Shown piece by piece: positions 11,687-57,456 of a DNA stretch of 64,000 nucleotides. Location of the stretch: the NCBI RefSeq assembly GCF_000371785.1, contig NZ_AQUI01000002.1, forward strand, positions 2,211,276-2,275,275, written 5' to 3'. Position numbers and translations under genes: made by a program. Origin of the DNA: Actinopolyspora halophila DSM 43834 (GTDB lineage Bacteria > Actinomycetota > Actinomycetes > Mycobacteriales > Pseudonocardiaceae). Numbering within the stretch: position 1 is the stretch's first letter; each line of letters opens with the position of its first letter. Under the pieces are notes generated by a model, which saw only the letters and a list, made by a program, of their open reading frames with translations, was not told where the DNA came from and did no database searches.

Positions 11687-11937
11687 ACAATCACCTTACG
11701 CGGATGATCCTCCGGAGATCCAGCAGCGGGCTCGGCGAGGAGTCGGATCGTGTTTTCGTGCCCGGCAGAAGCCGCGGGCGGGCGAGCCCGTGCTCGGAAC
11801 ACGGTCCTGAGCGCTGTCCGCGGGTATGGACCGGTGGTCGGAAACGGTATGGCTCCGAAAGGACGAGGCGGTTAACTTGTGATATCCGCCGCACGATCCG
11901 GTGCGGAAACGTTTTCGACTGTGGAGAGTGGTTGGGA

Positions 11938-13689
11938 ATGGTCGAGGCCACCGCGTTCGGGCCGCCCGACGTCGGAGGAGAGGAAAACCACGACGACACG
12001 CCCACCGAGCAGTTCCGTCGGGCGCGGGACTTCCTGCTGCGGAACAGAGCGGATCACGAGGCGGCACGCGCCGGGTTCCGCTGGCCCAGGCCCGAGCGGT
12101 TCAACTGGGCCCTGGACTGGTTCGACACCATAGGGCGGCGCAACGACCGCCCGGCGCTGTGGATCACACGTCCGGACGGCGGGGAGGACAGGATCTCCTA
12201 CGCCGAGCTGACGAAGCGTTCCAACCGGGTGGCGAACTGGTTGCGCGGGCTGGGAGCCGTGCGTGGCGACCGGTTGATACTCATGCTCGACAACAGGGTG
12301 GAACTCTGGGAGACCCTGCTGGCCGCCGTGAAGCTCGGTGTGGTGACCATCCCCGCCACACCGTTGCTGGGACCGGGCGAACTGCGGGACCGGGTGGAGC
12401 GCGGTCGGGCGAACCACGTGGTGACCGGTACCGAGCACGTCTCCAAGTTCGTCGACGTCGAGGGCGACTACACGCGGATAGCCGTCGGCGAGGAGACGAG
12501 CGGGTGGGTGAACTACGCCGACAGCGCGGGGGCCGACGAGCGGTTCGTCCCGGAAGGGATCACCCACGCGAACGATCCGCTGTTGCTGTACTTCACCTCG
12601 GGGACCACCGCGTTGCCCAAGTTGGTCGAGCACACCCACGTCTCGTACCCGGTCGGACATCTCAGCACGATGTACTGGCTGGGGCTGCAGCCGGGTGACG
12701 TGCACCTCAACATTTCCTCCCCCGGCTGGGCGAAGCACGCCTGGAGTTGCGTGTTCGCACCGTTCAACGCCGAGGCGACCGTGTTCGTGCACGGTTACGA
12801 GCGCTTCGATCCCGAGCGACTGCTCGACGAGATGTCCCGCTGCGGAGTCACGAGTTTCTGCGCGCCGCCGACCGTCTGGAGGATGCTGATCCAGTCCGAT
12901 CTCGGACGGCTGAGCCGACCTCCGCGCAGCGTCGTCAGCGCGGGCGAACCCCTCAACCCCGAGGTGATCGAACAGGTGGCCCGGGAGTGGTCGGTGACGA
13001 TCAGGGACGGGTTCGGGCAGACCGAGAGCAGCGTGCAGGTCGCGAACACCCCTGGACTACCGGTCAAGGAGGGATCCATGGGCAGGCCCCTTCCCGGCTT
13101 CGACGTGGCCCTGGTGGACCCGGCGACCGGGGAACGTGCCGCGGAGGGGGAGATCTGCCTGGCGCTCGACCCGCCTCCCGTGGGGCTGATGAGCGGTTAC
13201 TCCGACGAAGCGCAGACAGCCGAGGTGATGCGCGACGGCTACTACCACACGGGTGACGTGGGGCACGTGGACGAGGACGGCTACATCACTTATGTCGGAC
13301 GTACCGACGACGTGTTCAAGGCCTCGGACTACCGGATCTCGCCCTTCGAGCTGGAAAGCGTGCTCCTGCAGCACCCGGCCGTGGCCGAGGCCGCCGTGGT
13401 GCCCGCTCCCGATCCGGTTCGACTGGCCGTTCCGAAGGCCTACGTCGTACTGACGGCGGGGTGCTCGGGTGACAGTGACACGGCCCTGAGCGTGCTGCGC
13501 TACGCACGTGAGCAGCTGGCCGCCTACAAACGGGTCCGCAGGCTGCAGTTCGACGAGCTGCCGAAGACGATCTCGGGCAAGATCCGTCGCGTGGAGCTGC
13601 GCTCGAGAGAGCGGGACCGTCCCGCGGAGGGGGAACTTGCCGCGGGCACCGAGTTCAGGGAAGAGGATTTCCCCGAGTTGAAGGGGTGA
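11938..13689 (+). CDS. Acyl-CoA synthetase (ANL superfamily)
   Basis: A 583-residue AMP-forming acyl/acetyl-CoA synthetase. ATG 11938 was chosen as the first start before the family N-terminus; the open frame upstream lacks family sequence. Visible motifs are the phosphate-binding loop LLYFTSGTTALPKLVEHTH (A3), GEPLNPEV and DGFGQTES (A5), the hinge region YYHTGDVGHVDEDGYITYVG with the ATP-binding Asp (A7/A8), and the adenylation Lys near the end in ISGKIRRVELR (A10). The sequence most resembles medium-chain/benzoate-like acyl-CoA synthetases; the acid used is not certain. The next gene in the same direction begins 840 bp later, so it is probably monocistronic. Confidence 0.87.
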   Translation: MVEATAFGPPDVGGEENHDDTPTEQFRRARDFLLRNRADHEAARAGFRWPRPERFNWALDWFDTIGRRNDRPALWITRPDGGEDRISYAELTKRSNRVANWLRGLGAVRGDRLILMLDNRVELWETLLAAVKLGVVTIPATPLLGPGELRDRVERGRANHVVTGTEHVSKFVDVEGDYTRIAVGEETSGWVNYADSAGADERFVPEGITHANDPLLLYFTSGTTALPKLVEHTHVSYPVGHLSTMYWLGLQPGDVHLNISSPGWAKHAWSCVFAPFNAEATVFVHGYERFDPERLLDEMSRCGVTSFCAPPTVWRMLIQSDLGRLSRPPRSVVSAGEPLNPEVIEQVAREWSVTIRDGFGQTESSVQVANTPGLPVKEGSMGRPLPGFDVALVDPATGERAAEGEICLALDPPPVGLMSGYSDEAQTAEVMRDGYYHTGDVGHVDEDGYITYVGRTDDVFKASDYRISPFELESVLLQHPAVAEAAVVPAPDPVRLAVPKAYVVLTAGCSGDSDTALSVLRYAREQLAAYKRVRRLQFDELPKTISGKIRRVELRSRERDRPAEGELAAGTEFREEDFPELKG

Positions 13690-14106: not shown

Positions 14107-14529
14107 CTGCGCACGCGCATTGTACGACAACTTCCGGGCGATTGCCTTTGTCGGATCGTGACCCGGGGAAGTGAATGAGTGAATTATTCCAGGTGAGGGC
14201 GGATTTTTTCACCCTGGGTAACTACTCGAATCACGCGATCATCCCATTTCTATGATTAGGGTCACAGCTATTTGCTGTTGCATTTTTCGCGAATACGCCT
14301 AAGTTGGGTTCTCGGCGTACGGAATCTGCGCCGGGATCGGACGGCAAAGGTGCCGACCGAGTGTGCTGATCGATGCCAGCGCGCGGCCCGCTAGTTCGGC
14401 TGCCCGCATCGGTCCGGCGTGCCCCTTGTGTGAGGTGACCCGGCGCGCCCGTGAAAGCTCGGGGCGGCGTAATTCGCCGTGGTTCCGAGCGATGCAGTGG
14501 CGCTTGACCAACGCGAGTGGGAGCTGAGT

Positions 14530-16227
14530 ATGACCAAGAGCGTGGACGATCTTGCCCGTGGTGACCAGGCCGGGGACGAGCAGGACCCGGTGCACCGCGA
14601 GCAGCAGACGTTCGGCGACAATCCGTTGGAAGTACGCGACACTGATCACTACATGCATGAGTACGTCGGTGGTTTTGTCGACAAGTGGGACGATCTGATC
14701 GATTGGAAGAAGCGCTACGAAAGCGAGGGCAGCTTCTTCATCGACCAATTGCGCGCACGCGGTGTCGAGACCGTGCTGGACGCGGCGGCCGGGACCGGTT
14801 TCCACTCGGTCCGGTTGCTCGAGGAGGGGTTTGAGACCGTCAGCGCGGACGGCAGCCCGCAGATGCTGGCCAAGGCCTTCAGTAACGGACTGGCCTACAA
14901 CGGTCACATTCTGCGTGTGGTCAACGCGGACTGGCGTTGGCTCAACCGTGACGTGCACGGTGAATACGACGCGATCATTTGCCTGGGCAACTCCTTTACC
15001 CACCTGTTCTCGGAGCGGGACCGCCGCAAGACGCTGGCTGAGTTCTACGCGATGCTCAAGCACGACGGTGTCCTGATCATCGACCAGCGAAACTACGACT
15101 CCATTCTTGACACCGGCTTCTCCAGTAAGCACACGTATTACTACGCCGGTGAGGACGTTTCCGCGGAGCCCGACCACATCGACGACGGGCTGGCGCGGTT
15201 CAAGTACACGTTCCCGGACAAGTCCGAATTCTTCCTGAACATGTACCCGCTGCGGAAAGACTACATGCGGCGGCTCATGCGTGAGGTCGGTTTCCAAAGG
15301 ATTGACACCTACGGTGATTTCCAGGAAACTTACGGTGAAGACGAGCCCGACTTCTACATCCACGTCGCGGAGAAGAGCTACCGCACCGAGGACGAGTTCG
15401 TCGACATGTACTCGAACGCGGTGCACACCGCGCGGGACTACTACAACTCCGAGGACGCGGACAACTTCTACTACCACGTCTGGGGCGGCAACGACATCCA
15501 CGTCGGGCTGTACCAGACACCGCAGGAGGACATCGCCACCGCCAGTGAGCGCACTGTCCAGCGGATGGCGGGCAAGGTCGACATCAGCCCCGAAACCAGG
15601 ATTCTGGATCTCGGTGCCGGCTACGGCGGAGCCGCGCGGTACCTGGCCAGGACCTACGGCTGCCACGTCACCTGCCTCAACCTCAGCGAGGTGGAGAACC
15701 AGCGCAACCGCGAGATCACTCGCGCCGAGGGGCTCGAGCACCTGATCGAGGTGACCGACGGTTCCTTCGAGGATCTCCCCTACCAGGACAACGCGTTCGA
15801 CGTGGTCTGGTCGCAGGACTCCTTCCTCCACAGCGGTGACCGCAGCAGGGTCATGGAAGAGGTGACCCGGGTCCTCAAGCCGAAGGGTTCGGTGCTGTTC
15901 ACCGATCCGATGGCGTCCGACTCGGCGAAGAAGAACGAGCTCGGCCCCATCCTGGACAGGCTGCACCTGGACTCGCTCGGCTCGCCCGGTTTCTACCGGA
16001 AGGAGCTGACTCGTCTCGGGCTGCAGAACATCGAGTTCGAGGACCTCAGCGAATACCTGCCCGTCCACTACGGCCGGGTTCTGGAAGTGCTGGAGAGCCG
16101 GGAGAACGAGCTCGCCGGCTTCATCGGCGAGGAGTACCGAGCTCACATGAAGACCGGGCTGCGCAACTGGGTGCAGGCCGGCAATGGCGGGAGCCTGGCC
16201 TGGGGCATCATCCACGCCAGGGCATGA
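14530..16227 (+). CDS. Fused glycine/sarcosine N-methyltransferase - dimethylglycine N-methyltransferase
   Basis: A 565-residue bifunctional enzyme making glycine betaine from glycine by three SAM-dependent N-methylations. The N-terminal half (about 1-280) is GSMT-like: EYVGGFVDKWDDLIDWKKRY, then SAM motif I in VLDAAAGTGFHSVRL (about 82-96). The C-terminal half (about 300-565) is SDMT-like: YYHVWGGNDIHVGLY, then its own motif I, ILDLGAGYGGAARYL (about 358-372). Each half alone is the size of a separate enzyme in other halophiles; the fusion is the form described in Actinopolyspora halophila. The ATG has GGGAG 6 nt upstream. It heads a run of SAM-cycle genes that recycle the three SAH molecules made per betaine. 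The protein is acidic, as expected of a halophile. Confidence 0.93.
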   Translation: MTKSVDDLARGDQAGDEQDPVHREQQTFGDNPLEVRDTDHYMHEYVGGFVDKWDDLIDWKKRYESEGSFFIDQLRARGVETVLDAAAGTGFHSVRLLEEGFETVSADGSPQMLAKAFSNGLAYNGHILRVVNADWRWLNRDVHGEYDAIICLGNSFTHLFSERDRRKTLAEFYAMLKHDGVLIIDQRNYDSILDTGFSSKHTYYYAGEDVSAEPDHIDDGLARFKYTFPDKSEFFLNMYPLRKDYMRRLMREVGFQRIDTYGDFQETYGEDEPDFYIHVAEKSYRTEDEFVDMYSNAVHTARDYYNSEDADNFYYHVWGGNDIHVGLYQTPQEDIATASERTVQRMAGKVDISPETRILDLGAGYGGAARYLARTYGCHVTCLNLSEVENQRNREITRAEGLEHLIEVTDGSFEDLPYQDNAFDVVWSQDSFLHSGDRSRVMEEVTRVLKPKGSVLFTDPMASDSAKKNELGPILDRLHLDSLGSPGFYRKELTRLGLQNIEFEDLSEYLPVHYGRVLEVLESRENELAGFIGEEYRAHMKTGLRNWVQAGNGGSLAWGIIHARA

Positions 16228-16284
16228 CAGCCGTCGCGTACGAAGAACGATCAGAAGCAGTTAGCAGTGAGGTGAAGATCAGCC

Positions 16285-17487
16285 GTGACTGAGATGAACC
16301 GCAGGTTGTTCACCAGTGAGTCCGTGACCGAGGGCCACCCGGACAAGATGGCCGACTCGATCAGCGACGCGATCCTGGACGCGATGCTGGCTCAGGACCC
16401 CCGCTCCCGCGTGGCCATGGAGACCATGATCACCACCGGGCAGGTGCACCTGGCCGGTGAGGTGACCACCGAGGCCGACGTCGACCTGCCCGCGATCGTG
16501 CGGGAGAAGGTCCTCGAGATCGGCTACGACAACTCGGCCAAGGGCTTCGACGGAGACTCCTGCGGCATCAACGTCTCCATCGACGCGCAGTCCCCGGACA
16601 TCGGCCAGGGCGTGGACTCCGCTCACGAGTCCCGCGTCGAGGGTGCCATCGACGAGATCGCCAGTCAGGGCGCCGGCGACCAGGGCCTGATGTTCGGTTA
16701 CGCCACCAGCGAGACCGACGAGCTCATGCCGCTGCCGATCGCGTTGGCCCACCGCATGTCGCGTCGACTGACCCGCGTGCGCAACGACGGCACGCTGCCG
16801 TACCTGCGTGCCGACGGCAAGACCCAGGTCACCGTCGAGTACGCCGGTGACCAGCCGGTTCGCCTGGACACCACGGTGCTGTCCAGCCAGCACGCCGAGG
16901 ACGTCGACCTCGACAAGCAACTGATCCCCGAGGTCAGGGACAAGGTCATCACCCCGGAGATCGAGAAGGTCGGGCTGGACACCTCGGACATGCGTCTGCT
17001 GGTGAATCCGACGGGTCGGTTCGTCACGGGTGGTCCGATGGGTGACTGCGGCCTGACCGGCCGCAAGATCATCGTCGACACCTACGGCGGGATGGCCCGC
17101 CACGGTGGCGGTGCCTTCTCCGGTAAGGACCCGTCGAAGGTGGACCGTTCGGCGGCCTACGCCACGCGCTGGGTGGCCAAGAACGTGGTGGCCGCCGGCC
17201 TGGCCGACCGCGTGGAGGTGCAGACCGCCTTCGCGATCGGCAAGGCCGCGCCGGTGGGTCTGTTCGTGGAGACCTTCGGCACCGAGAACGTGGACCCGGA
17301 CAAGATCCAGGCCGCGATCAACGAGGTGTTCGACCTGCGTCCGGCGGCGATCATCCGGGACCTGGACCTGCTGCACCCGATCTACGCGCCGACGGCGGCC
17401 TACGGCCACTTCGGCCGTACGGACGTGGACCTGCCCTGGGAACGCACCAACCGCGTCGAGGCGCTGAAGAACGCCGCGGGCCTCTGA
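16285..17487 (+). CDS. metK: S-adenosylmethionine synthetase
   Basis: A 400-residue MetK of normal length that makes SAM from methionine and ATP in the cytoplasm. Seen are the N-terminal [18 protein letters not shown] (methionine/ATP-binding, about residues 12-29), the flexible-loop region [12 protein letters not shown] (about 131-142) and the phosphate/Mg loop [19 protein letters not shown] (about 273-291). The GTG start is supported by a GAGGTGAAG site about 8 nt upstream. It follows the GSMT-SDMT gene by 57 bp and is almost certainly co-transcribed, supplying the methyl donor. Actinobacteria usually have another metK near their purine/primosome genes, so this may be a dedicated second copy; that cannot be tested within the window. 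Confidence 0.95.
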
Positions 17488-17512
17488 CAGCCGAATACGC
17501 GACGTATCGTCG

Positions 17513-17549
17513 ACGCCGCGGGGCGCGGTTCTCCCGCGCCCCGCGGCGT
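17513..17549 (+). terminator. Perfect 16-bp GC hairpin between metK and adenosine kinase
   Basis: ACGCCGCGGGGCGCGG (17513-17528) and its exact complement (17534-17549) flank a 5-nt TTCTC loop. It lies 25 bp after the metK stop and has no U-run after it. It could be a terminator, an attenuating or partial-readthrough element, or an mRNA-stabilising stem at an operon segment boundary. Confidence 0.7.
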
Positions 17550-17635
17550 GGCGAGCAACACCAGGTTCGCTCACCCCAGATGACCGCCGGCCGGTGGCGG
17601 ACCACCGACATCGGCCTTGGTGAAGGAGTTTCGCA

Positions 17636-18610
17636 GTGCAAATTGCGGTGACCGGCTCGATCGCCACCGACCATTTGATGTCTTTTCCCGGCAAGATCGC
17701 CGACCAGCTCATCGCGGACCGACTCGACCAGGTTTCGCTGTCGTTCCTCGTGGACGAGCTGGAGGTTCGCCGTGGTGGTGTCGCGGGCAACATCACGTTC
17801 GGACTCGGCCAACTCGGCGTGAAGTCGCTGTTGGTCGGTGCGGTCGGCGAGGACTTCGCCGAGTACCGCACCTGGTTGGAGCGCCACAGCGTGGACACCA
17901 GCACGGTGCACACCTCGAAGACGGCCCACACTGCCCGCTTCACGTGCACCACGGACGAGACGCAGAACCAGATCGCCTCGTTCTACCCGGGCGCCATGTC
18001 CGAGGCACGCGAGATCGAGCTCAAGCCGATCTCCGACCGCGTGGACGGCCTGGATCTCGTGGTCGTCTCGGCGAACGATCCCGAGGCGATGCTGCGGCAC
18101 AGTCAGGAATGCCGCGACCGCGGCTACGAGTTCCTGGCTGATCCGGGGCAGCAGCTCGCCCGCATGGACGGCCCGCAGATCCGTAAGCTGGTGGAGGGTG
18201 CCAAGTACCTGTTCACCAACGAGTACGAGCACAGCCTCCTCCTGCAGACCACCGGGCTCTCACACGCCGAGGTGCTGCAGCAGGTCGGCATGTGGGTCAC
18301 CTCGCTGGGCGAGAACGGTGTGCGCATCGAGTCCGCCTCGGCGAAGACGATCGAGATCGCCCCGGTGAAGCCGAAGCAGGTCGGCGACCCGACCGGTGTC
18401 GGCGACGCGCTGCGCGCGGGCTTTCTCGCCGGGCTGTCGAACGGGCTCGGACTCGAGCGTTCCGTCCAGCTCGGCTGCACCCTCGCGACTACATCCCTGG
18501 AGACCGACGGTCCCCAGGAATACGAAGTGGAGAAGGGCTCGTTCGTGTCCAGGTTCGCCGAGGCTTACGGCAACCAGGCCGCGGGTGAAATCGAGTCCGT
18601 GCTTCGCTGA
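17636..18610 (+). CDS. adoK: Adenosine kinase (PfkB/ribokinase family)
   Basis: A 324-residue PfkB-family sugar kinase that phosphorylates adenosine to AMP. The N-terminal MQIAVTGSIATDHLMSFPGK and the glycine-rich RRGGVAGNITFGLGQLG (PfkB signature 1, about residues 44-60) resemble the mycobacterial adenosine kinase. The C-terminal signature DPTGVGDALRAGFLAGL (about 251-267) contains the catalytic Asp of GVGD. The GTG start follows GAAGGAG. Between metK and metH/ahcY its role is clear: removing the adenosine released by SAH hydrolase, which pulls that reversible reaction toward SAH removal and feeds AMP back to ATP for SAM synthesis. Confidence 0.9.
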   Translation: MQIAVTGSIATDHLMSFPGKIADQLIADRLDQVSLSFLVDELEVRRGGVAGNITFGLGQLGVKSLLVGAVGEDFAEYRTWLERHSVDTSTVHTSKTAHTARFTCTTDETQNQIASFYPGAMSEAREIELKPISDRVDGLDLVVVSANDPEAMLRHSQECRDRGYEFLADPGQQLARMDGPQIRKLVEGAKYLFTNEYEHSLLLQTTGLSHAEVLQQVGMWVTSLGENGVRIESASAKTIEIAPVKPKQVGDPTGVGDALRAGFLAGLSNGLGLERSVQLGCTLATTSLETDGPQEYEVEKGSFVSRFAEAYGNQAAGEIESVLR

Positions 18611-18630
18611 AGCGTTCGGAAGGCAGCGTG

Positions 18631-21600
18631 ATGACGACACAGGAAGAATCGGGCCGTCGGGACAACGACCCGAGTGGGTTCCTCACGGCCATCGCCGAAC
18701 GCGTGCTCGTCGGGGACGGCGGCATGGGTACGGCGTTGCAGGAGTACGACCTCTCGCTGGAGCAGGACTTCCAGAACCTCGAGGGTTGTAACGAGATCCT
18801 CAACGAGACGCGTCCCGACGTGCTGCGCTCGATCTACACGGGGTTCCTCACCAACGGCTCCGACGCCATCGAGTCGAACACCTTCGGCTGCAACCTGCCC
18901 AACCTCGGCGAGTACGGCATCGAGGAGCGCATCCGCGACCTCGCCGAGAAGGGCGTGGCGCTGGCGCGGGAGTGCTGTGACGAGTACTCCACCCCGGACA
19001 AGCCCCGCTTCGTGCTGGGTTCGATGGGGCCGGGCACCAGGCTGCCCACCCTCGGCCACGCCCCCTACGCCGATCTCAGGGACGCCTATCACAAGCAGGT
19101 GCTGGGCATGCTCGACGGCGGCGTCGACGTGGTGCTGGTCGAGACCTCGCAGGACCTGCTGCAGACCAAGGCCGCGATCGTCGCCGCGAAGCGGGCGATG
19201 GCCGAGCAGGGCAAGTGGGTCCCGATCATCGCCCACGTCACCGTCGAGCAGACCGGAACCATGCTGGTCGGCTCCGAGATCGGTGCGGCGCTGGCGGCCC
19301 TGGAGCCGCTGGGCATCGACATGATCGGTATGAACTGCGCGACAGGCCCGGCCGAGATGAGCGAGCACCTGCGGGTGCTGGCCGAGCACGCGACCGTGCC
19401 GATCTCGGTCATGCCCAACGCCGGTCTGCCCGAGCTGGGTGACAACGGTGCGGTCTACCCGTTGCAGCCGCACGAGCTGGCCGAGGCGCTGGTCGGCTTC
19501 GCGAACAACTACGGCGCCCGCCTCGTCGGCGGTTGCTGTGGCGTGACAGGCGAGCACGTGCGTCAGGTCGCCGAAGCGGTCGAGGGGCTCAACCCGGCAC
19601 CGCGCGAGCCCGAGGTCGTGCCGTCGATCTCCTCGATGTACCAGGCGATCCCGTTCAAGCAGGACGCCTCGATCCTCAACGTCGGTGAACGCACCAACGC
19701 CAACGGATCCAAGGCGTTCCGCGAGGCGATGCTCGAGGAGCGCTACGACGACTGCATCGAGATCGCCAAGGGGCAGACCCGCGAGGGCGCGCACATGCTC
19801 GACCTGTGCGTGGACTACGTCGGCCGTGACGGCAAGTACGACATGCGGGAACTGGCCTCGCGCCTGGCCACCTCCTCCACGTTGCCGATCATGGTGGACT
19901 CCACCGAGGCCGACGTGATCGAGGTGGGCCTCGAGCACCTCGGCGGGCGCTGTGCGATCAACTCGATCAACTACGAGGACGGCACCGAAGAGGGCGGACG
20001 CTACGACCGGGTCATGAAGATGGCCGTCGAGCACGGTGCCTCCGTGGTCTGCACCTGCATCGACGAGGAGGGGCAGGCGCGCACCGCCGACTGGAAGCTG
20101 CGCGTGGCCGAGCGGATCATCGAGGATCTGACCCGCAACTGGGGCTTGGACGAGTCGGCCATCATCATCGACTGCCTGGTCTTCCCGATCACCACCGGTC
20201 AGGAAGAGGTCCGCCAGGACGGCATCGAGACGATCAACGCGATCCGCGAGCTCAAGAAACGTCACCCGCGGGTGCAAACGACGCTGGGGCTGTCGAACGT
20301 CTCCTTCGGGCTCAACGCCGCGGCCCGGCAGGTGCTCAACTCGGTGTTCCTCAACGAGTGCAGCGATGCGGGGCTGGACAGTGCCATCGTGCACGCCTCC
20401 AAGATCCTGCCGATGAACAAGATCGACGACGAGGCCCGCCAGGTCGCGCTCGACCTCGTCTACGATCGACGCAGCGCTGCCTCCGAGGACCAGGCGGCCT
20501 ACGACCCGCTGCAGAAGCTCATGAGCCTGTTCGAGGGCAAGTCGGCTGAGTCCACCGGTTCCTCCAAGGCCGAGGAACTCGCGGCCATGCCGCTGTTCGA
20601 CCGTCTGCAGCAGCGCATCATCGACGGTGAGATGAACGGTCTCAATGTCGATCTCGAAGAGGCCATGAAGGAGAAGAAGCCACTCGAGATCGTCAACGAG
20701 ACCCTGCTCGCCGGGATGAAGGTCGTCGGCGACCTGTTCGGTTCCGGGCAGATGCAGCTGCCGTTCGTGCTGCAGTCCGCCGAGGCCATGAAGACCGCGG
20801 TGGCTCAGCTCGAGCCGTACATGGAAAAGGACGACTCCGGCGGCAAGGGCAAGCTGCTGCTGGCCACGGTCAAGGGCGATGTGCACGACATCGGCAAGAA
20901 CCTGGTCGACATCATCGTGTCCAACAACGGCTACGACGTGGTCAACATCGGCATCAAGCAGTCGATCAACACGATCCTGGAAGAAGCCGAGAACCACAAC
21001 GTCGACGCCATCGGCATGTCCGGGCTGCTGGTCAAGTCCACCGTGATCATGAAGGACAACCTGGAGGAGATGAACTCCAGGGGGCTCGCCGAGAAGTACC
21101 CGGTGATGCTCGGTGGTGCGGCGCTGACCCGTACCTACGTGGAGAACCAGCTCGAGGAGGTCTTCGAGGGCGACGTCCGCTATGCCAAGGACGCCTTCGA
21201 GGGACTGACCCTGATGGACCGCATCATGTCCTCCAAACGGGGCGACAACCCGGAGGAGGACGAGGCGGAGAAGACCAAGAAGGCCGAACGCAAGGCTCGT
21301 CACGAGCGCTCCCAGCGCATCGCCGAGAAGCGCAAGGCCGAGCAGGGTGAGCTGCCAGGACTCGACGACACGACGAAGTCGGACGTCGACGAGAACCCCG
21401 GTGTGCCCACACCGCCGTTCTGGGGTTCGAAGGTGGTCAAGGGCGTTCCGGTGTCGGACTACCTGTCGCTGCTGGACGAGCGGGCCACTTTCTTCGGACA
21501 GTGGGGGCTCCGCGGTGCCAAGAAGGGCCAGGGTCCCTCGTACGAGGAACTGGTGGAGTCCGACGGGCGCCCGCGGTTGCGGGCCTGGATGGACGAACTG

Positions 21601-22236
21601 GCGACGAAGGGAATCCTGCAGCACGCGGCGGTGGTCTACGGCTACTTCCCGTGCGTGTCCGAGGGCAACGACCTCGTCGTGCTCGACAAGGACGAGCCGG
21701 ACGCCCAGGAGCGGCACCGCTTCCACTTCCCCCGGCAGCAGCGGGATCGCCGCCTGTGCCTGGCGGACTTCTACCGCTCGAGGGACAAGGCCACCGAGCT
21801 CGGTCAGGTCGATGTCCTGCCGATCCAGTTGGTGACGATGGGTACGCCGATCGCCGACTACGCCAACGAGCTGTTCGCCGAGAACTCCTACCGGGACTAC
21901 CTGGAGATCCACGGTCTGGGCGTTCAGCTGACGGAGGCGCTGGCGGAGTACTGGCACCGCCGTGTCCGCAAGGAGCTGCTCTGGTCCGCGGGCCGTTCGG
22001 TCTCGGAGGAGGATCCCGAGGACGTCGAGCAGTTCTTCAAGCTCGGCTACCGGGGTGCCAGGTTCTCCTTCGGCTACGGTGCCTGCCCGGACATCGAGGA
22101 CCGGGAGAAGCTCGTGAACCTGCTCGGCAGCGAGCGCATCGGCGTGGTGCTCTCGGAGGGGTACCAGTTGCACCCGGAGCAGTCGACCGACGCGATCGTC
22201 AGCCACCACCCGGAAGCCAAGTACTTCAACGTGTGA
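18631..22236 (+). CDS. metH: Cobalamin-dependent methionine synthase
   Basis: A full-length MetH of 1201 residues that remethylates homocysteine with 5-methyltetrahydrofolate. Domains in order: homocysteine-binding barrel (about 10-330) with zinc cysteines in MNCATG (about 234) and VGGCCG (about 300-305); pterin-binding barrel starting NVGERTNANGSKAF (about 350); cobalamin cap; cobalamin domain with GDVHDIGKN (about 749-757), whose His is the cobalt ligand; a highly charged Lys/Glu/Ala-rich linker (about 870-930); and the C-terminal SAM-binding reactivation domain with YGACPD (about 1149). ATG 18631 is preferred (GGAAGG 7 nt upstream) over an in-frame GTG just before it. The gene starts 20 bp after adoK, so it is co-transcribed and closes the methyl cycle. 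Confidence 0.95.
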   Translation: MTTQEESGRRDNDPSGFLTAIAERVLVGDGGMGTALQEYDLSLEQDFQNLEGCNEILNETRPDVLRSIYTGFLTNGSDAIESNTFGCNLPNLGEYGIEERIRDLAEKGVALARECCDEYSTPDKPRFVLGSMGPGTRLPTLGHAPYADLRDAYHKQVLGMLDGGVDVVLVETSQDLLQTKAAIVAAKRAMAEQGKWVPIIAHVTVEQTGTMLVGSEIGAALAALEPLGIDMIGMNCATGPAEMSEHLRVLAEHATVPISVMPNAGLPELGDNGAVYPLQPHELAEALVGFANNYGARLVGGCCGVTGEHVRQVAEAVEGLNPAPREPEVVPSISSMYQAIPFKQDASILNVGERTNANGSKAFREAMLEERYDDCIEIAKGQTREGAHMLDLCVDYVGRDGKYDMRELASRLATSSTLPIMVDSTEADVIEVGLEHLGGRCAINSINYEDGTEEGGRYDRVMKMAVEHGASVVCTCIDEEGQARTADWKLRVAERIIEDLTRNWGLDESAIIIDCLVFPITTGQEEVRQDGIETINAIRELKKRHPRVQTTLGLSNVSFGLNAAARQVLNSVFLNECSDAGLDSAIVHASKILPMNKIDDEARQVALDLVYDRRSAASEDQAAYDPLQKLMSLFEGKSAESTGSSKAEELAAMPLFDRLQQRIIDGEMNGLNVDLEEAMKEKKPLEIVNETLLAGMKVVGDLFGSGQMQLPFVLQSAEAMKTAVAQLEPYMEKDDSGGKGKLLLATVKGDVHDIGKNLVDIIVSNNGYDVVNIGIKQSINTILEEAENHNVDAIGMSGLLVKSTVIMKDNLEEMNSRGLAEKYPVMLGGAALTRTYVENQLEEVFEGDVRYAKDAFEGLTLMDRIMSSKRGDNPEEDEAEKTKKAERKARHERSQRIAEKRKAEQGELPGLDDTTKSDVDENPGVPTPPFWGSKVVKGVPVSDYLSLLDERATFFGQWGLRGAKKGQGPSYEELVESDGRPRLRAWMDELATKGILQHAAVVYGYFPCVSEGNDLVVLDKDEPDAQERHRFHFPRQQRDRRLCLADFYRSRDKATELGQVDVLPIQLVTMGTPIADYANELFAENSYRDYLEIHGLGVQLTEALAEYWHRRVRKELLWSAGRSVSEEDPEDVEQFFKLGYRGARFSFGYGACPDIEDREKLVNLLGSERIGVVLSEGYQLHPEQSTDAIVSHHPEAKYFNV

Positions 22237-22298
22237 CACACGCTGCTGAAGCGTAGAACACAACAGTGTCCCTAACAGGGAAATGAGGAAGGGAAATC

Positions 22299-23762
<1,464 letters not shown>

Positions 23763-23787
23763 TCCGGTACGTGCACGAACGCGTGTG

Positions 23788-23826
23788 ACGTGGGTGGCCA
23801 CCGCTGATCGTGGTGGCCACCCACGT
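23788..23826 (+). terminator. Perfect 15-bp hairpin between ahcY and metF
   Basis: ACGTGGGTGGCCACC (23788-23802) and its exact complement (23812-23826) enclose a 9-nt loop, 25 bp after the ahcY stop. There is no T-run. metF starts 39 bp later with a strong GGAGG, so this may be a partial terminator or mRNA-processing boundary rather than an operon end. Confidence 0.6.
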
Positions 23827-23865
23827 GTATCGGGCCCCGCAACGACACAGTCGAGGAGGCTGAAG

Positions 23866-24759
23866 GTGACTCGGGTCGTGGACCGGCTACAGCCGGGCAG
23901 AACCGTGTTCTCCGTGGAGTTCTTTCCGCCGCGCAACGACGAGGAAGAGCAGATCCTCTGGAAGGCCGTGCGCGAGCTGGAACCGCTGGACCCCGCCTAC
24001 GTCTCGGTGACCTACGGCGCGGGCGGCTCCAGCAGGGACCGCACGATTCGCACGGTCGGGCGTATCGCCCGGGAAAGCACCATGCTGCCGATGGCACACC
24101 TGACCGGTGTGGATCACTCCAAGGAAGAACTGCGCCACGTCGTCGGATCGCTGTCCGACGAGGGCATCCGGAACATCCTGGCGATCCGCGGGGATCCACC
24201 GGGGGACCCGATGGGGCAGTGGATCCCGCATCCGGACGGGATCCTCTACGCGGACGAACTGGTGAACCTGGTTCGTTCCTGCGGGGACTTCTCGGTGGGC
24301 GTGGCCGCGTTTCCGCACATGCATCCGCGTTCCACGGACCTCGAGACGGAGACGGATCACCTCGCCGGCAAGATCCGGGCCGGGGCGGAGTTCGCGGTCG
24401 CGCAGCTTTTCCTGCAGCCCGAGTACTTCCTGAGGTTGCGGGACCGACTGGCGGCCCGTGACTGTCACGTTCCCCTGCTCCCCGGAGTCATGCCGATCAC
24501 GACTCCCAAGGTGTTGAGCAAGTTCCAGCACCTGGCCGGGGTCCCCGTTCCCCCGGAGGTCTCCACGGTGCTCGATCCCCTGGAGGACGATCCGAAGGCC
24601 TTCCGTGCCGCGGGGATAGACCTGACGACCAAGTTGTGCGAACGGTTGATCTCGGAAGGCGTTCCCGGCCTGCACTTCTACAGTCTCAACCGGGCGAAGG
24701 CCACCCGTGATGTGGTGGGCAACCTCGGTCTGGCCGAGGGAGTGCTCCAGCCCGCCTGA
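23866..24759 (+). CDS. metF: 5,10-methylenetetrahydrofolate reductase
   Basis: A 297-residue MTHFR-family flavoprotein that reduces 5,10-methylene-THF to 5-methyl-THF, the methyl donor of MetH. The family barrel is recognisable from FSVEFFPPRNDEEE (about residues 14-27), VSVTYGAGGSSRDRT (about 46-60), HLTGVDHSKEEL, NILAIRGDPPGD and QLFLQPEYFLRLRDRL. The GTG start at 23866 has GGAGG 6 nt upstream; the open frame before it only reads ahcY downstream sequence. It completes the set of enzymes feeding one-carbon units into the betaine-driven methyl cycle. Confidence 0.92.
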   Translation: MTRVVDRLQPGRTVFSVEFFPPRNDEEEQILWKAVRELEPLDPAYVSVTYGAGGSSRDRTIRTVGRIARESTMLPMAHLTGVDHSKEELRHVVGSLSDEGIRNILAIRGDPPGDPMGQWIPHPDGILYADELVNLVRSCGDFSVGVAAFPHMHPRSTDLETETDHLAGKIRAGAEFAVAQLFLQPEYFLRLRDRLAARDCHVPLLPGVMPITTPKVLSKFQHLAGVPVPPEVSTVLDPLEDDPKAFRAAGIDLTTKLCERLISEGVPGLHFYSLNRAKATRDVVGNLGLAEGVLQPA

Positions 24760-36688: not shown

Positions 36689-37123
36689 TCAGCCGACCGA
36701 GCGACCGGCGTACTCGGGTAGGGGCTCGACGAGCTCGGCAGTCCGCCGGGCCACCTGCTCCGGAAGCTGCGTCGCCCGGCCCGATGCGCCGTCCACGTGA
36801 ACGGCGAGGAGCTCCTCGGTGGCGACGAGCCGACCGTTCGCACTCATCTCGTGGCAGATACGCAGCTTTTTGCCCGCTGCCGTGACGATCCTGCTCGTGA
36901 CGTCCAGCTCACTGTCCGGACCGACCTCGTGCAGATAGCGCACATGGGCTTCGACGGTGTACACAGAACACCCCGTGGTGCTTCGGTATCGCGCGTCGAC
37001 ACCGATCTCGTCCAGCACCGCGTCGGTGGCGAAGCCGAACACCAGCACGTAGTAGCCCTCGCTGAGGTGCCCGTTGTAGTCGATCCACTCGGGGCGAACC
37101 CGATACCGGGAGTGCATGCTCAT
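36689..37123 (-). CDS. Betainyl-CoA thioesterase (hot-dog fold), carnitine catabolism
   Basis: A 144-residue hot-dog thioesterase of the 4-hydroxybenzoyl-CoA thioesterase type. The active-site strand/helix is RVRPEWIDYNGHLSEGYYVLVFGFATD (in two parts, about residues 7-33), with Asp/Asn-Gly-His conserved. Its start overlaps the stop of the carnitine dehydrogenase gene (ATGA), as in Pseudomonas cdhA-cdhB, and in some species the two are fused. From this context it is predicted to hydrolyse glycine-betainyl-CoA to glycine betaine and CoA. Confidence 0.82.
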   Translation of the reverse strand: MSMHSRYRVRPEWIDYNGHLSEGYYVLVFGFATDAVLDEIGVDARYRSTTGCSVYTVEAHVRYLHEVGPDSELDVTSRIVTAAGKKLRICHEMSANGRLVATEELLAVHVDGASGRATQLPEQVARRTAELVEPLPEYAGRSVG

Positions 37124-38082
37124 TCCGTTCCCCTCCGGACGTCGCCCACGGCGCGGAGCACGGAGATGATCGCGCGGTCGCGGTCACCGACCAGCTCGGT
37201 GATGCTTCGTCCGGCTGCCTCCTCCTCGCATCCCCGAACCATCGAGTCCCGGAGCTCCTCGGTGAGCTCGGGAGCGTCCAGCCTGGTCCACGGGGACTTC
37301 AGGGAAGGACCGAACTGATCCAGCATGTGTGCCATGCCGCCCTCGCCTCCGGCCAGGTGGAAGGTCATGCACGGTCCGAAGAGCGGCCAGCGCAACCCGG
37401 GCCCCTCGGTGATCGCCGTGTCGATCTGTTCCACGGTGGCTTCACCGTTGTCGACCATGTGCAGCGCCTCGCGCCAGAGCGCCTCCTGCAGCCTGTTGGC
37501 GACGAACCCGGGGACCTCGCGGTCCATGGTTATCACCGATTTGCCGGTGATCTCGAAGAACTCCGCGGCCCAGCGAGTCGCCCAGGTGGCCGTGGAGGTG
37601 CCGCCGACCACCTCGACCAGCGGAATCAGGTAGGGCGGGTTGAACGGATGCCCCACCACGAGCCTGCTCGGATCCGCGCAGTCACGTTGCATGTCGGTCA
37701 TCTCGTAACCGGATGTGGAGGAGGAGATCACCACACCGGCTGGGGCGGCCGCATCGATCCGAGCCAGCAGGTCGCGTTTGACCTCCAGCTGTTCCGGGGC
37801 GCTTTCCTGAACGAACTGCGCGTTCGCGACCGCCTGCTCGAGGGTCGGTGCGACGGTGAGGTTCTCCCGCGCCGCCCCGTCGGACAAACCGAGTTCCCGC
37901 AGAGCGGGCCACGCCGCGTCGACGAGCCGCTCGAGGCGGGACTCGGCGTCCGCGGCCGGGTCCCAGGCGGTGACCCGATACCCCCGCGCCAGGAAGTGCG
38001 CGACCCAGCCGCCGCCGATCACTCCGGCCCCGATGCAGGCGACCCTGCTCACCTCGTTCGGAGCTGTCCGTTGCTCGTTCAA
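37120..38082 (-). CDS. L-carnitine dehydrogenase (3-hydroxyacyl-CoA dehydrogenase family)
   Basis: A 320-residue NAD-dependent dehydrogenase. The Rossmann motif is VACIGAGVIGGGWVAHFLAR (about residues 13-32), followed by QESAPEQLEVKRDLLARID, the catalytic region VVGHPFNPPYLIPLVEVVGG (His-Pro-Phe-Asn, about 142-161) and REVPGFVANRLQEALWREAL. These are hallmarks of L-carnitine 3-dehydrogenases, which oxidise carnitine to 3-dehydrocarnitine. The TTG start has GGAGG 6-7 nt upstream. It sits directly between the BKACE and thioesterase genes, which fixes its role with good confidence. Confidence 0.86.
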   Translation of the reverse strand: MNEQRTAPNEVSRVACIGAGVIGGGWVAHFLARGYRVTAWDPAADAESRLERLVDAAWPALRELGLSDGAARENLTVAPTLEQAVANAQFVQESAPEQLEVKRDLLARIDAAAPAGVVISSSTSGYEMTDMQRDCADPSRLVVGHPFNPPYLIPLVEVVGGTSTATWATRWAAEFFEITGKSVITMDREVPGFVANRLQEALWREALHMVDNGEATVEQIDTAITEGPGLRWPLFGPCMTFHLAGGEGGMAHMLDQFGPSLKSPWTRLDAPELTEELRDSMVRGCEEEAAGRSITELVGDRDRAIISVLRAVGDVRRGTE

Positions 38083-38129
38083 GTAGTGCCTCCGGTTGAC
38101 GTCTTGTTCGGGGGTGGTCGGTGTCGCGG

Positions 38130-39011
38130 TCAGTTCCGCAGTCCGAGCTTGTTCCTGGCCTGCGCGGGTGAGGCCACGGTTCCGCCCATGCTTTCCAGGA
38201 TCGTCACGGCGCGTTCCACCAGCTGGGCGTTACTGGCCTTGACGCCCTTGCGCAGGTAGAGGTTGTCCTCGAGCCCCACCCGCACGTGGCCGTCGAGCAC
38301 CGCGGACTGCGCGACCCAGGGCAGCTGATCGCGCCCGATCGCGAAACTTGCCCAGTTCGACCCTTGCGGAAGCATGTTGATCATCGCCTGCAGCACACCG
38401 GGGTCTGCCGGAGCCCCGTAGGGGATTCCCATGCAGAACTGGAAGAGGGCCGGTTTGTCGATGATGCCCTCGGAGATGAGCTTGCTCGCCAGCCACAGCT
38501 GCCCGGTGTCGAACACCTCGAGCTCGGGTTTCACCCCGAGTTCCTGGATACGGCGGGAACCGGCCCGCAGCATGTCCGGAGTGCTGATGTAGAGCTGGCT
38601 GCCGTCACCGAAGTTGAGGGAACCGCAGTCCATCGTGCAGATGTCCGGCAGCAGGGTCTCCACGTGCGGCAGGCGGTCGAGACCGTTGACGAGGTCGGTT
38701 CCGTCGACCGGCTTGAGCGGATCCTCCTGGTCGATGAACAGGTCTCCGCCCATGCCCGCGGTCAGGTTGATGACCACGTCCGTTCCCGTCTCGCGGATCC
38801 GGCGCACCACCTCGGAGTAGAGTTTGGTGTCCCGGGAGGGTTCGCCCGTCTCGGGGTCGCGGACGTGGATGTGGACCACGGCTGCGCCTGCGTTCGCCGC
38901 CTCCACGGCCGATTGGGCGATCTGTTCCGGGGTCACCGGTACGTGCTCGCTCTTGCGGGGGGTGTCGGCCGCGCCGGTGAGCGCGGCGGTGATGATGATC
39001 TCGTCCTGCAT
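38130..39011 (-). CDS. BKACE-family (DUF849) 3-dehydrocarnitine:acetyl-CoA trimethylamine-acetyl transferase
   Basis: A 293-residue beta-keto acid cleavage enzyme. It begins [15 protein letters not shown] and has the zinc-binding [13 protein letters not shown] (two His, about residues 47-49), [10 protein letters not shown], a mid-barrel [11 protein letters not shown] and the conserved Glu in VGLEDNLYL (about 253). Beside a carnitine dehydrogenase it is predicted to condense 3-dehydrocarnitine with acetyl-CoA, giving acetoacetate and betainyl-CoA, as the Pseudomonas CdhC does. The ATG is 47 bp upstream of the dehydrogenase start region, in one operon with it. Confidence 0.86.
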
Positions 39012-54163: not shown

Positions 54164-54285
54164 CCGCTGCTTCGACTGCTCGGGCGAACCGACCGTATCG
54201 TGGGAAGCGGGACCCCTTACGCGTTTTCGGGCAATTCCTGAATGGCACGAGATGAGGTACTCTCGCATCCGTCGCCGACCCCGTA

Positions 54286-54500
54286 CGGGAGAGACCACTC
54301 CGAAGCGATCTCGGTGTGGCGCCGAAGGAGCAAACCCTCCCCGACAACCTCTCAGGCCATTGGGACCGTACGGGCGAGATACCTCTGGAAAGAGGGCTTC
54401 GCCACAGTGTCGTGGTGAAACCCCGCCGACGGTGCAAGCCCTGTCCACAGGGCGAAGCTCTCAGGCGTCCGCCTCGCGGGCATTGACAGAGGGGGAGGCC
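54286..54500 (+). promoter_or_regulatory. Tandem glycine riboswitch upstream of gcvP
   Basis: Two glycine aptamers in series. The first begins GGGAGAGACC (54288) and shows GCGCCGAAGGAGCAA, CCTCCCC and CTCTCAGGCC before GGGACCG. The second begins near 54390 (CTCTGGAAAGAGG), with CGCCGACGGTGCAAG, AGGGCGAAGCTCTCAGGCG and the closing ACAGAGGGGG. Glycine binding normally switches on glycine-cleavage genes. The gcvP ATG is about 60 nt beyond. The 120 bp between the merR stop and 54286 contain the presumed promoter, not identified. Confidence 0.9.
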
Positions 54501-54561
54501 AGCACGTCCACGCGGAGTGCTGTCTGCCCTGTCCCATGCCCGCACGATTGAGGTTTTGGCG

Positions 54562-57456
<2,895 letters not shown>

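What the first reader, a model, noticed from the sequence alone, without database searches (positions are those of the whole stretch)
14530..24759. De novo glycine betaine operon with a complete built-in SAM-recycling pathway
A fused GSMT-SDMT gene is followed in the same direction by metK, adenosine kinase, metH, ahcY and metF. Each betaine needs three SAM and yields three SAH. The run contains the methyl donor maker, SAH removal, adenosine removal, homocysteine remethylation and the methyl-THF supplier. The individual enzymes and the fusion are known; having the whole cycle, including adoK and metF, as one chromosomal unit is the notable point.
Basis: partly seen in the sequence, partly recalled or inferred. 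Interest (0 to 1): 0.75.

Follow-up and report, generated by a model that had tools for sequence, protein, structure and literature searches.

The report
Betaine genes linked to methyl-recycling genes
A salt-loving bacterium keeps the gene that makes the salt protectant glycine betaine next to the genes that recycle the methyl carrier it uses up; this layout was already published for a close relative, but most of the recycling genes turn out to be the cell's only copies.

Summary
In detail: fused GSMT-SDMT (BET), metK, adoK, metH, ahcY and metF lie in one direction at 14530-24759. The novelty claim fails. Imhoff et al. 2020 (PMC7824335, Table 4) print 'fusedMT-MAT-o-MS-SAHase-MTHFR' for Actinopolyspora halophila; the unnamed 'o' sits where adoK sits here. 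Adenosine kinase in an archaeal betaine cluster is mentioned in PMC5201303.

What I add:
(1) ahcY, metH, adoK and metF are each single-copy here; only metK is duplicated. The cluster holds the cell's general methyl cycle, not a spare.
(2) Linkage follows BET: metK lies within 15 kb of ahcY in 15 of 16 BET+ relatives (one of the 15, G011, in a cassette apart from BET) and 0 of 25 BET- relatives.
(3) Slots persist while enzymes change (another MTHFR family; a divergent MetH).
(4) Jiangellaceae clusters carry non-native metK and ahcY, consistent with transfer.
(5) A lineage-limited conserved leader RNA precedes BET.

'One operon' is unproven: hairpins follow metK and ahcY. In three Saccharopolyspora the first abuts the adoK ribosome site, suggesting read-through.

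The parts
14209..14221 (+). near-palindrome TCACCC-T-GGGTAA, conserved upstream of BET; possible operator
   Evidence: alignment of 21 upstream regions; function inferred
14251..14266 (+). TATGATTAGGGTCACA, resembling a CRP-type site (TGTGA-N6-TCACA, motif recalled)
   Evidence: conserved in 21 aligned upstream regions; binding not tested
14278..14305 (+). candidate promoter: -35 TTGCAT, -10 TAAGTT
   Evidence: conserved positions; inferred by eye, not reported by the sigma-70 scan
14311..14435 (+). conserved structured leader RNA of BET (helices P1-P4)
   Evidence: 24-locus alignment and pair counts; covariance-model hit 120 bits here, 101-130 bits in five loci not used to build the model; no credible Rfam match
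14530..16227 (+). BET: fused glycine/sarcosine and sarcosine/dimethylglycine N-methyltransferase
16285..17487 (+). metK, methionine adenosyltransferase (cluster copy)
   Evidence: TIGR01034 540 bits; second copy elsewhere
17512..17549 (+). strong GC hairpin without T run between metK and adoK
   Evidence: -47.7 kcal/mol; compensatory changes over 18 loci; coordinates
17636..18610 (+). adoK, adenosine kinase (PfkB family)
   Evidence: PF00294; 3e-109 to solved adenosine kinases
18631..22236 (+). metH, cobalamin-dependent methionine synthase
   Evidence: TIGR02082 1454.7 bits; start GTG 18628 also possible
22299..23762 (+). ahcY, adenosylhomocysteinase
   Evidence: TIGR00936 622.7 bits
23790..23824 (+). 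inverted repeat (hairpin) between ahcY and metF, no T run
   Evidence: read from the sequence, coordinates; the same stem in A. biskrensis folds at -41.1 kcal/mol
23866..24759 (+). metF, 5,10-methylenetetrahydrofolate reductase (start inferred from relatives)
   Evidence: PF02219 290 bits
24779..24813 (+). terminator-like stem followed by CTTTTC

Best explanation
This is the known actinobacterial type of de novo betaine locus. The fused methyltransferase turns glycine into betaine, using three SAM and making three SAH. MetK supplies SAM. AhcY splits SAH, which inhibits such methyltransferases, into homocysteine and adenosine. AdoK removes adenosine and so pulls the reversible AhcY step forward. 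MetH remethylates homocysteine with methyl-THF from MetF. In this genome ahcY, metH, adoK and metF are the only copies found, so the locus is the cell's general methyl cycle placed beside a heavy methyl consumer; only metK has a second, unlinked copy. Shown: identities, order, copy numbers, conservation, and linkage only where the methyltransferase is present in the genomes examined. Inferred: flux coupling, one main regulated promoter before BET with read-through past the metK hairpin at a reduced level, and salt control.
For: Gene identities. Own copy numbers: ahcY 1, metH 1, adoK 1, metF 1, metK 2. Linkage: metK within 15 kb of ahcY in 15 of 16 BET+ relatives (G004, broken contigs, is the miss; G011 counts through a cassette apart from BET) and 0 of 25 BET- relatives; in a sample of 98 class genomes, 4 of 5 BET+ and 0 of the 73 BET- genomes in which both genes were found. 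Named genomes: metK directly follows BET in 33 of 79 loci; of the 20 of these 33 with at least 8.2 kb downstream, 19 have metK-adoK-metH-ahcY. The same order is printed for A. halophila. SAH inhibits archaeal GSMT (50% at 0.05-0.07 mM). Slot conservation with enzyme replacement.
Against: No expression data. Strong hairpins follow metK and ahcY, so there may be two or three transcripts. metF is not always there: of 19 loci with at least 9.1 kb downstream, 9 have metF, 3 have an MTHFR_2-type gene and 7 have neither recognised, one of these being S. kobensis with BET-metK alone. 46 of 79 loci have BET without the cycle genes beside it; 5 of these 46 have under 600 bp downstream. So the linkage is not required. 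An unlinked MTHFR_2 gene in this genome means metF may not be the only MTHFR activity.
Confidence: 0.85

Rival explanations
1. Two or three neighbouring transcription units, not one operon: a salt-controlled BET-metK unit that ends at the metK hairpin, a constitutive adoK-metH-ahcY housekeeping unit, and metF on its own. The duplicated metK is then the only betaine-dedicated cycle enzyme.
For: Hairpins of -38 kcal/mol or stronger lie between metK and adoK in 20 of the 22 Pseudonocardiaceae loci visible in the cut output, against 4 of 38 BET-metK and 2 of 28 metH-ahcY gaps; those gaps are often shorter and no shuffled control was run. 6 of 16 consensus pairs show changes on both sides over 18 loci. 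In the window, 5 of 28 gaps have a hairpin of -41 kcal/mol or stronger: this one (-47.7), one of five convergent gene ends (-46.2) and three other gaps. Single-copy ahcY and metH must be expressed without salt too.
Against: None of the 18 aligned stems is followed by a T run. In S. rhizosphaerae, S. ipomoeae and S. flava the stem runs straight into the adoK ribosome site, leaving no room for a promoter. 5 of 8 Jiangellales-type clusters lack a strong hairpin there, as do Tamaricihabitans and G023.
Confidence: 0.4
2. Plain genomic hitchhiking: the genes sit together by descent, with no functional selection for the whole set.
For: Close relatives inherit gene order, and the BET tree needs only 4 changes of the label over 85 rows.
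Against: The order holds across Pseudonocardiaceae and Jiangellaceae clusters although BET is 68-73% identical there. The MTHFR slot is filled by PF02219 or PF19345, and one MetH slot by a 33% identical enzyme. Cluster ahcY genes are rejected as one clade (AU p = 8e-12), so the slot seems to have been filled at least twice.
Confidence: 0.08
3. The locus is a mobile methyl-cycle cassette whose transfer between orders brought its own metK and ahcY and, in some lineages, displaced the native ahcY.
For: Jiangellaceae cluster metK is rejected as a clade with the other metK genes of that family (AU p = 0.004); likewise cluster ahcY with ahcY of BET-less genomes of the same family code f32 (p = 0.0001). 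Those four BET-less genomes (genus code g63, Jiangella by my guess) have one ahcY each, not near metK. Jiangella asiatica has two ahcY; four named Phytoactinopolyspora have one each, in the cluster.
Against: No mobility genes were looked for. Cluster ahcY of most Pseudonocardiaceae and of Jiangellaceae are different lineages, so it was not transferred unchanged. The metK tree is a quick one without bootstrap. The groups were tested after first trees had been seen, so the p-values are optimistic.
Confidence: 0.5

Closest known systems
Actinopolyspora halophila betaine locus (Imhoff et al. 2020, PMC7824335, Table 4 and section 3.2.5; passages seen)
   Same: fused methyltransferase, MAT, one unnamed gene, MS, SAHase, MTHFR in the same order; same genus
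   Different: the paper leaves the third gene as 'o'; here it is an adenosine kinase ('adenosine kinase' occurs 0 times in its main text). Copy number, leader and slot replacement are not in the passages seen.
Roseivivax roseus and Roseovarius nitratireducens clusters (same paper, Table 2)
   Same: fused methyltransferase with MTHFR, MS, MAT and SAHase
   Different: different order; no adenosine kinase listed
Halorhodospira GMT-DMT-MAT-SAHase-MTHFR (same paper, Table 3)
   Same: methyl-cycle genes linked to betaine methyltransferases
   Different: unfused methyltransferases; methionine synthase elsewhere
Methanohalophilus portucalensis betaine cluster (PMC5201303 and PMC3176816, passages seen)
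   Same: SAM synthetase, SAH hydrolase and adenosine kinase with gsmt and sdmt
   Different: archaeal; two methyltransferase genes; no metH or metF in the passages seen
MTHFR_2 / Rv2172c (PMC8765232, abstract and section headings seen)
   Same: MTHFR activity shown for Rv2172c; PF19345 members fill the metF slot in related clusters
   Different: the window's metF is the PF02219 type; its PF19345 gene is unlinked. That Rv2172c belongs to PF19345 is taken from the Pfam name and recall.

Membership tests
De novo betaine synthesis by GSMT-SDMT | GSMT and SDMT domains, here fused | tested here: met
   GSMT model over cut-off; SDMT model nearly full length but under its cut-off; both halves match solved relatives
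De novo betaine synthesis by GSMT-SDMT | makes betaine from glycine in vivo | not testable with these tools
   enzyme assay needed
Actinopolyspora-type betaine and methyl-cycle cluster | order fusedMT-MAT-o-MS-SAHase-MTHFR | tested here: met
   against Table 4 of PMC7824335
Actinopolyspora-type betaine and methyl-cycle cluster | gene 'o' is adenosine kinase | tested here: inconclusive
   one search shows it for the window; the A. halophila gene itself was not compared
Dedicated (duplicated) SAM cycle | second housekeeping copies of the cycle genes elsewhere | tested here: not met
   one ahcY, metH, adoK and metF; two metK
Single operon | one transcript | not testable with these tools
   hairpins at two junctions; no RNA data
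Known riboswitch in the BET leader | match to an Rfam family | tested here: not met
Riboswitch or thermosensor acting by hiding the ribosome site | Shine-Dalgarno paired in the predicted ensemble | tested here: not met
   in 21 of 24 leaders more than half of 40 shuffles paired the site at least as much; the other three gave 10 (window), 9 and 19 of 40. The result shifts with the stretch folded.

The most novel reading that the evidence does not exclude
The leader before BET (14311-14435 and on to the start codon) is a new, lineage-restricted cis-regulatory RNA, perhaps binding a methyl-cycle or osmolyte ligand or a protein. It would set betaine synthesis together with the cell's only methyl cycle from one control point.
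Probability: 0.2. Interest if true: 0.65.

Novelty: new member of a known kind. Interest (0 to 1): 0.36.

Why it matters
Methyl-based betaine synthesis depends on SAM supply and SAH removal. Loci where evolution has assembled, and re-filled, every step of that cycle suggest which enzymes an engineered betaine producer may need, adenosine kinase and an MTHFR included. That ahcY and metH here are the only copies means a stress pathway and general methylation share one locus, which can be tested directly. The conserved leader gives a concrete handle on how betaine synthesis is regulated.

Tried and rejected
Rejected: Shine-Dalgarno sequestration by the leader. The alignment consensus pairs GACCCGGC with GTGGGAG, but those pairs hardly vary, so covariation says little. 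In single-sequence ensembles the site was not unusually paired in 21 of 24 leaders.

Rejected: known riboswitches in the cluster. There was no Rfam match at gathering score inside it, and only weak chance-like matches at relaxed E-values. The one riboswitch found in the window (glycine) lies before gcvP.

Not supported: a multi-gene riboswitch class. In two cmsearch calls over 133 sources and 2.64 Mb (the window, 72 of the 156 loci then in hand apart from the own-genome stretches, and 60 stretches of 1.2 Mb of the own genome), strong hits were only upstream of BET in Actinopolyspora/Saccharopolyspora-type loci. No other score exceeded 21.0 bits. About 4 Mb of the own genome was not scanned.

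Rejected: a halophile-only arrangement, and a complete duplicate cycle.

Led nowhere: the first ahcY and metK trees held wrong-strand rows; conclusions use the repeats. In the repeats I left out three divergent metK rows, and two metK and two ahcY rows that repeat assemblies already present. Paper searches returned nothing. Searches gave no further paper on this locus in what was listed; of 121 papers in one search I saw 15 titles and abstract starts. The output was cut, so part of its table (the end of metK-adoK, much of adoK-metH) was not seen.

Full report
OBSERVATION. Pfam, NCBIfam and solved-structure searches support all identities. The weak points are the SDMT half (387 bits against a cut-off of 550, nearly full-length) and metF (285 against 294 in TIGR00676, but 290 bits against a cut-off of 24 in PF02219). 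An AMP-binding enzyme gene lies upstream (11704-13689) here and in many relatives; the downstream PhoX-type gene was seen again only in A. biskrensis. Nothing ties either to the pathway.

ORIGIN. The window lies in a 5.35 Mb genome. Its BET protein is 98% identical to that of Actinopolyspora biskrensis, and it falls inside Actinopolyspora in the tree.

WHAT IS KNOWN. Imhoff et al. 2020 (PMC7824335; passages seen) list 'fusedMT-MAT-o-MS-SAHase-MTHFR' for A. halophila in Table 4 and related sets in Roseivivax, Roseovarius and Halorhodospira; for Halorhodospira they state the logic that methyl groups are supplied and SAH removed. For Methanohalophilus, SAM synthetase, SAH hydrolase and adenosine kinase in the betaine cluster are mentioned as unpublished data in PMC5201303, and SAH inhibition is measured in PMC3176816; passages seen of both. 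My identification of the 'o' slot rests on the window's gene, not on the A. halophila sequence.

COPY NUMBER. Over 41 genomes (own plus 40 relatives), the own genome has one match each for ahcY, metH, adoK and metF, and two for metK. It also has an unlinked PF19345 MTHFR and a lone GSMT-type gene. The cluster therefore carries the general methyl cycle, not a second set.

LINKAGE. BET is in 16 of 41 relatives. Pairs of cycle genes within 15 kb: metK-ahcY 15 of 16 BET+ and 0 of 25 BET-; metK-adoK 16 of 16 and 0 of 20; metH-ahcY 14 of 16 and 0 of 25 (places copied). The misses are G004 (broken contigs) and, for metH, also G011. In G011 BET lies alone and a metK-adoK-ahcY cassette sits elsewhere with folate genes, so G011 counts as linked for metK-ahcY without being linked to BET. 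In 98 class genomes BET is in 5; metK is near ahcY in 4 of those 5 and in 0 of 73 BET-less genomes where both were found. In 79 named loci metK follows BET in 33; of the 20 of these with at least 8.2 kb downstream, 19 have the four-gene order (exception Saccharopolyspora kobensis). The 46 others include Streptomyces, Nocardiopsis, Actinomadura and Actinomycetospora; 5 of the 46 have under 600 bp downstream and cannot be judged well. The BET tree needs 4 changes of the label (shuffled mean 28).

SLOT REPLACEMENT. After ahcY, 9 of 19 loci have metF, 3 have a relative of the PF19345 gene and 7 have neither recognised. Further such cases are L039, L085 and L095, and L094 has both. Pfam confirms PF19345 for L085, L095 and L096 (L096 is L010 again), and a PF19345 genome search confirms the L094 gene (G021). 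G012, G014 and G022 have no match to the window's MetF at E 1e-30 and carry PF19345 in the cluster slot. Rv2172c, an MTHFR by assay (PMC8765232, abstract and headings), is of this family by the Pfam name and recall. In G012 the metH slot holds a MetH only 33% identical to the query, and a 68% one lies elsewhere. Keeping the function while changing the protein argues for selection on the whole cycle.

TRANSFER. Jiangellaceae cluster metK does not group with the other metK genes of that family (AU p = 0.004), nor cluster ahcY with ahcY of four BET-less genomes of the same family code (p = 0.0001). All cluster ahcY genes as one clade is rejected (p = 8e-12), so the ahcY slot seems to have been filled from at least two lineages. 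The groups were chosen after first trees were seen, which makes these p-values optimistic. In 26 named BET+ genomes ahcY counts vary from 0 to 3. 0 occurs in three drafts; the cluster contigs of two of them (L013, L024) end inside ahcY and that of the third (L012) just after metH.

TWO metK COPIES. In four Actinopolyspora genomes (own, G001, G003, G006) and Halosaccharopolyspora (G014) the two copies are 91-98% identical in DNA over codons 1-120 and 95-98% over codons 240-400, with longest identical runs of 200 to 457 bp. Over codons 200-240 they are 59-69% identical. There each cluster copy resembles the cluster copies of the other four better (81-85% on average); housekeeping copies average 72-77% in Actinopolyspora but only 60% for Halosaccharopolyspora. 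G021 shows this weakly and G022 hardly. This looks like repeated gene conversion of the ends with an unconverted copy-specific middle. Selection for an isozyme and simple resistance of a diverged stretch to conversion both fit.

TRANSCRIPTION. Between the six genes the scan found no + strand terminator-like site with a T run; one lies after metF, one before BET (14264-14278) and one inside metF, with 7 sites in all against 5.9 expected. Hairpins without T runs lie after metK and ahcY; similar ones are common at these two junctions in relatives (20 of 22 visible Pseudonocardiaceae metK-adoK gaps at -38 kcal/mol or stronger; 8 of 11 ahcY-metF gaps at -36 or stronger). No shuffled control was run on those energies. 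The metK-adoK alignment shows double changes at 6 of 16 predicted pairs. In three Saccharopolyspora the stem abuts the adoK ribosome site. My reading is partial termination or mRNA processing with read-through; this is inference.

LEADER. Upstream of BET, 21 aligned loci share two near-palindromes, a plausible promoter and about 220 nt of leader. Mean column identity is 0.67-0.91 in the leader and 0.76-0.83 over the promoter region, against 0.53-0.70 further out. In 24 loci (23 distinct) the consensus structure has 98.7% of cells paired, and 30 cells are changed on both sides (shuffled mean 8.6, 0 of 500 shuffles as high); the number of further pair types does not exceed shuffles (289 of 500). 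Slid versions pair 25-48%, although the structure came from the same alignment. Double changes occur at 7 of 45 pairs, four of them in P1-P3; P4 and most of the ribosome-site helix hardly vary. Single-sequence folding is only modestly better than shuffles (z -2.0 and -1.1). The model finds five loci not used to build it, L014, L020 (both copies), L033, L090 and L094, at 101-130 bits and nothing outside such loci above 21 bits. The Jiangellales, Streptomyces and other BET loci searched gave no match above 20 bits. Ribosome-site hiding was tested and not supported. None of the 15 papers listed by one search has a title about such a leader.

VERDICT. Correct observation, largely published arrangement, with some new detail. 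Expression claims are untested.

Noticed in passing
window 36689-39011 (-): Carnitine dehydrogenase-like gene (351.6 bits, under its cut-off of 414), a keto-acid cleavage enzyme relative (also under cut-off) and a small hotdog-type gene (my reading, not searched) in a row: possibly a carnitine-to-betaine route 12 kb from the betaine cluster.
   Followed up: partly
window 54276-57456: Glycine riboswitch aptamer (66 bits) just before gcvP; glycine is both the methyl acceptor and a one-carbon source for the cluster.
   Followed up: partly
G000:C2:1677363-1678193 (L082 8193-9212): A lone GSMT-type gene without SDMT (NCBIfam 453.5 bits) in the own genome, between gltX-like and HAD genes and leuCD-like genes (neighbours named by eye except the HAD gene); also in five relatives, one with a TGA inside.
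   Followed up: partly
window 16285-17487 and L097: The two metK copies look gene-converted at both ends, with a copy-specific middle (codons about 200-240).
   Followed up: yes
L090 7805-11409: metH of a one-contig relative genome (G003) reads in two overlapping frames, split near residue 880; real split or sequencing error.
   Followed up: no
L084 and L086: A second methyl-cycle cassette: metK (60-62%), adoK, ahcY with an MTHFR, a MetE-like protein, a 507-514 aa protein of unknown family, and formate-THF ligase (L086) or PurU (L084); its methyl consumer is unknown.
   Followed up: partly
L020 2-2707 and 8266-11234: Saccharopolyspora dendranthemae has two copies of leader, BET and metK on opposite strands, facing away from each other.
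   Followed up: no
window 14497-14529 and relatives: Just before BET the frame reads VA[HL]DQREW. Of 17 rows printed, 9 end in a stop two codons before the BET start (a possible short leader peptide) and 8 (Actinopolyspora, G022, S. oryzae) are open into BET.
   Followed up: partly
L036-L047 upstream of BET: Jiangellales BET genes seem to have long leaders too, several with a motif around CTGGTCAG, unlike the leader in the window (by eye).
   Followed up: no
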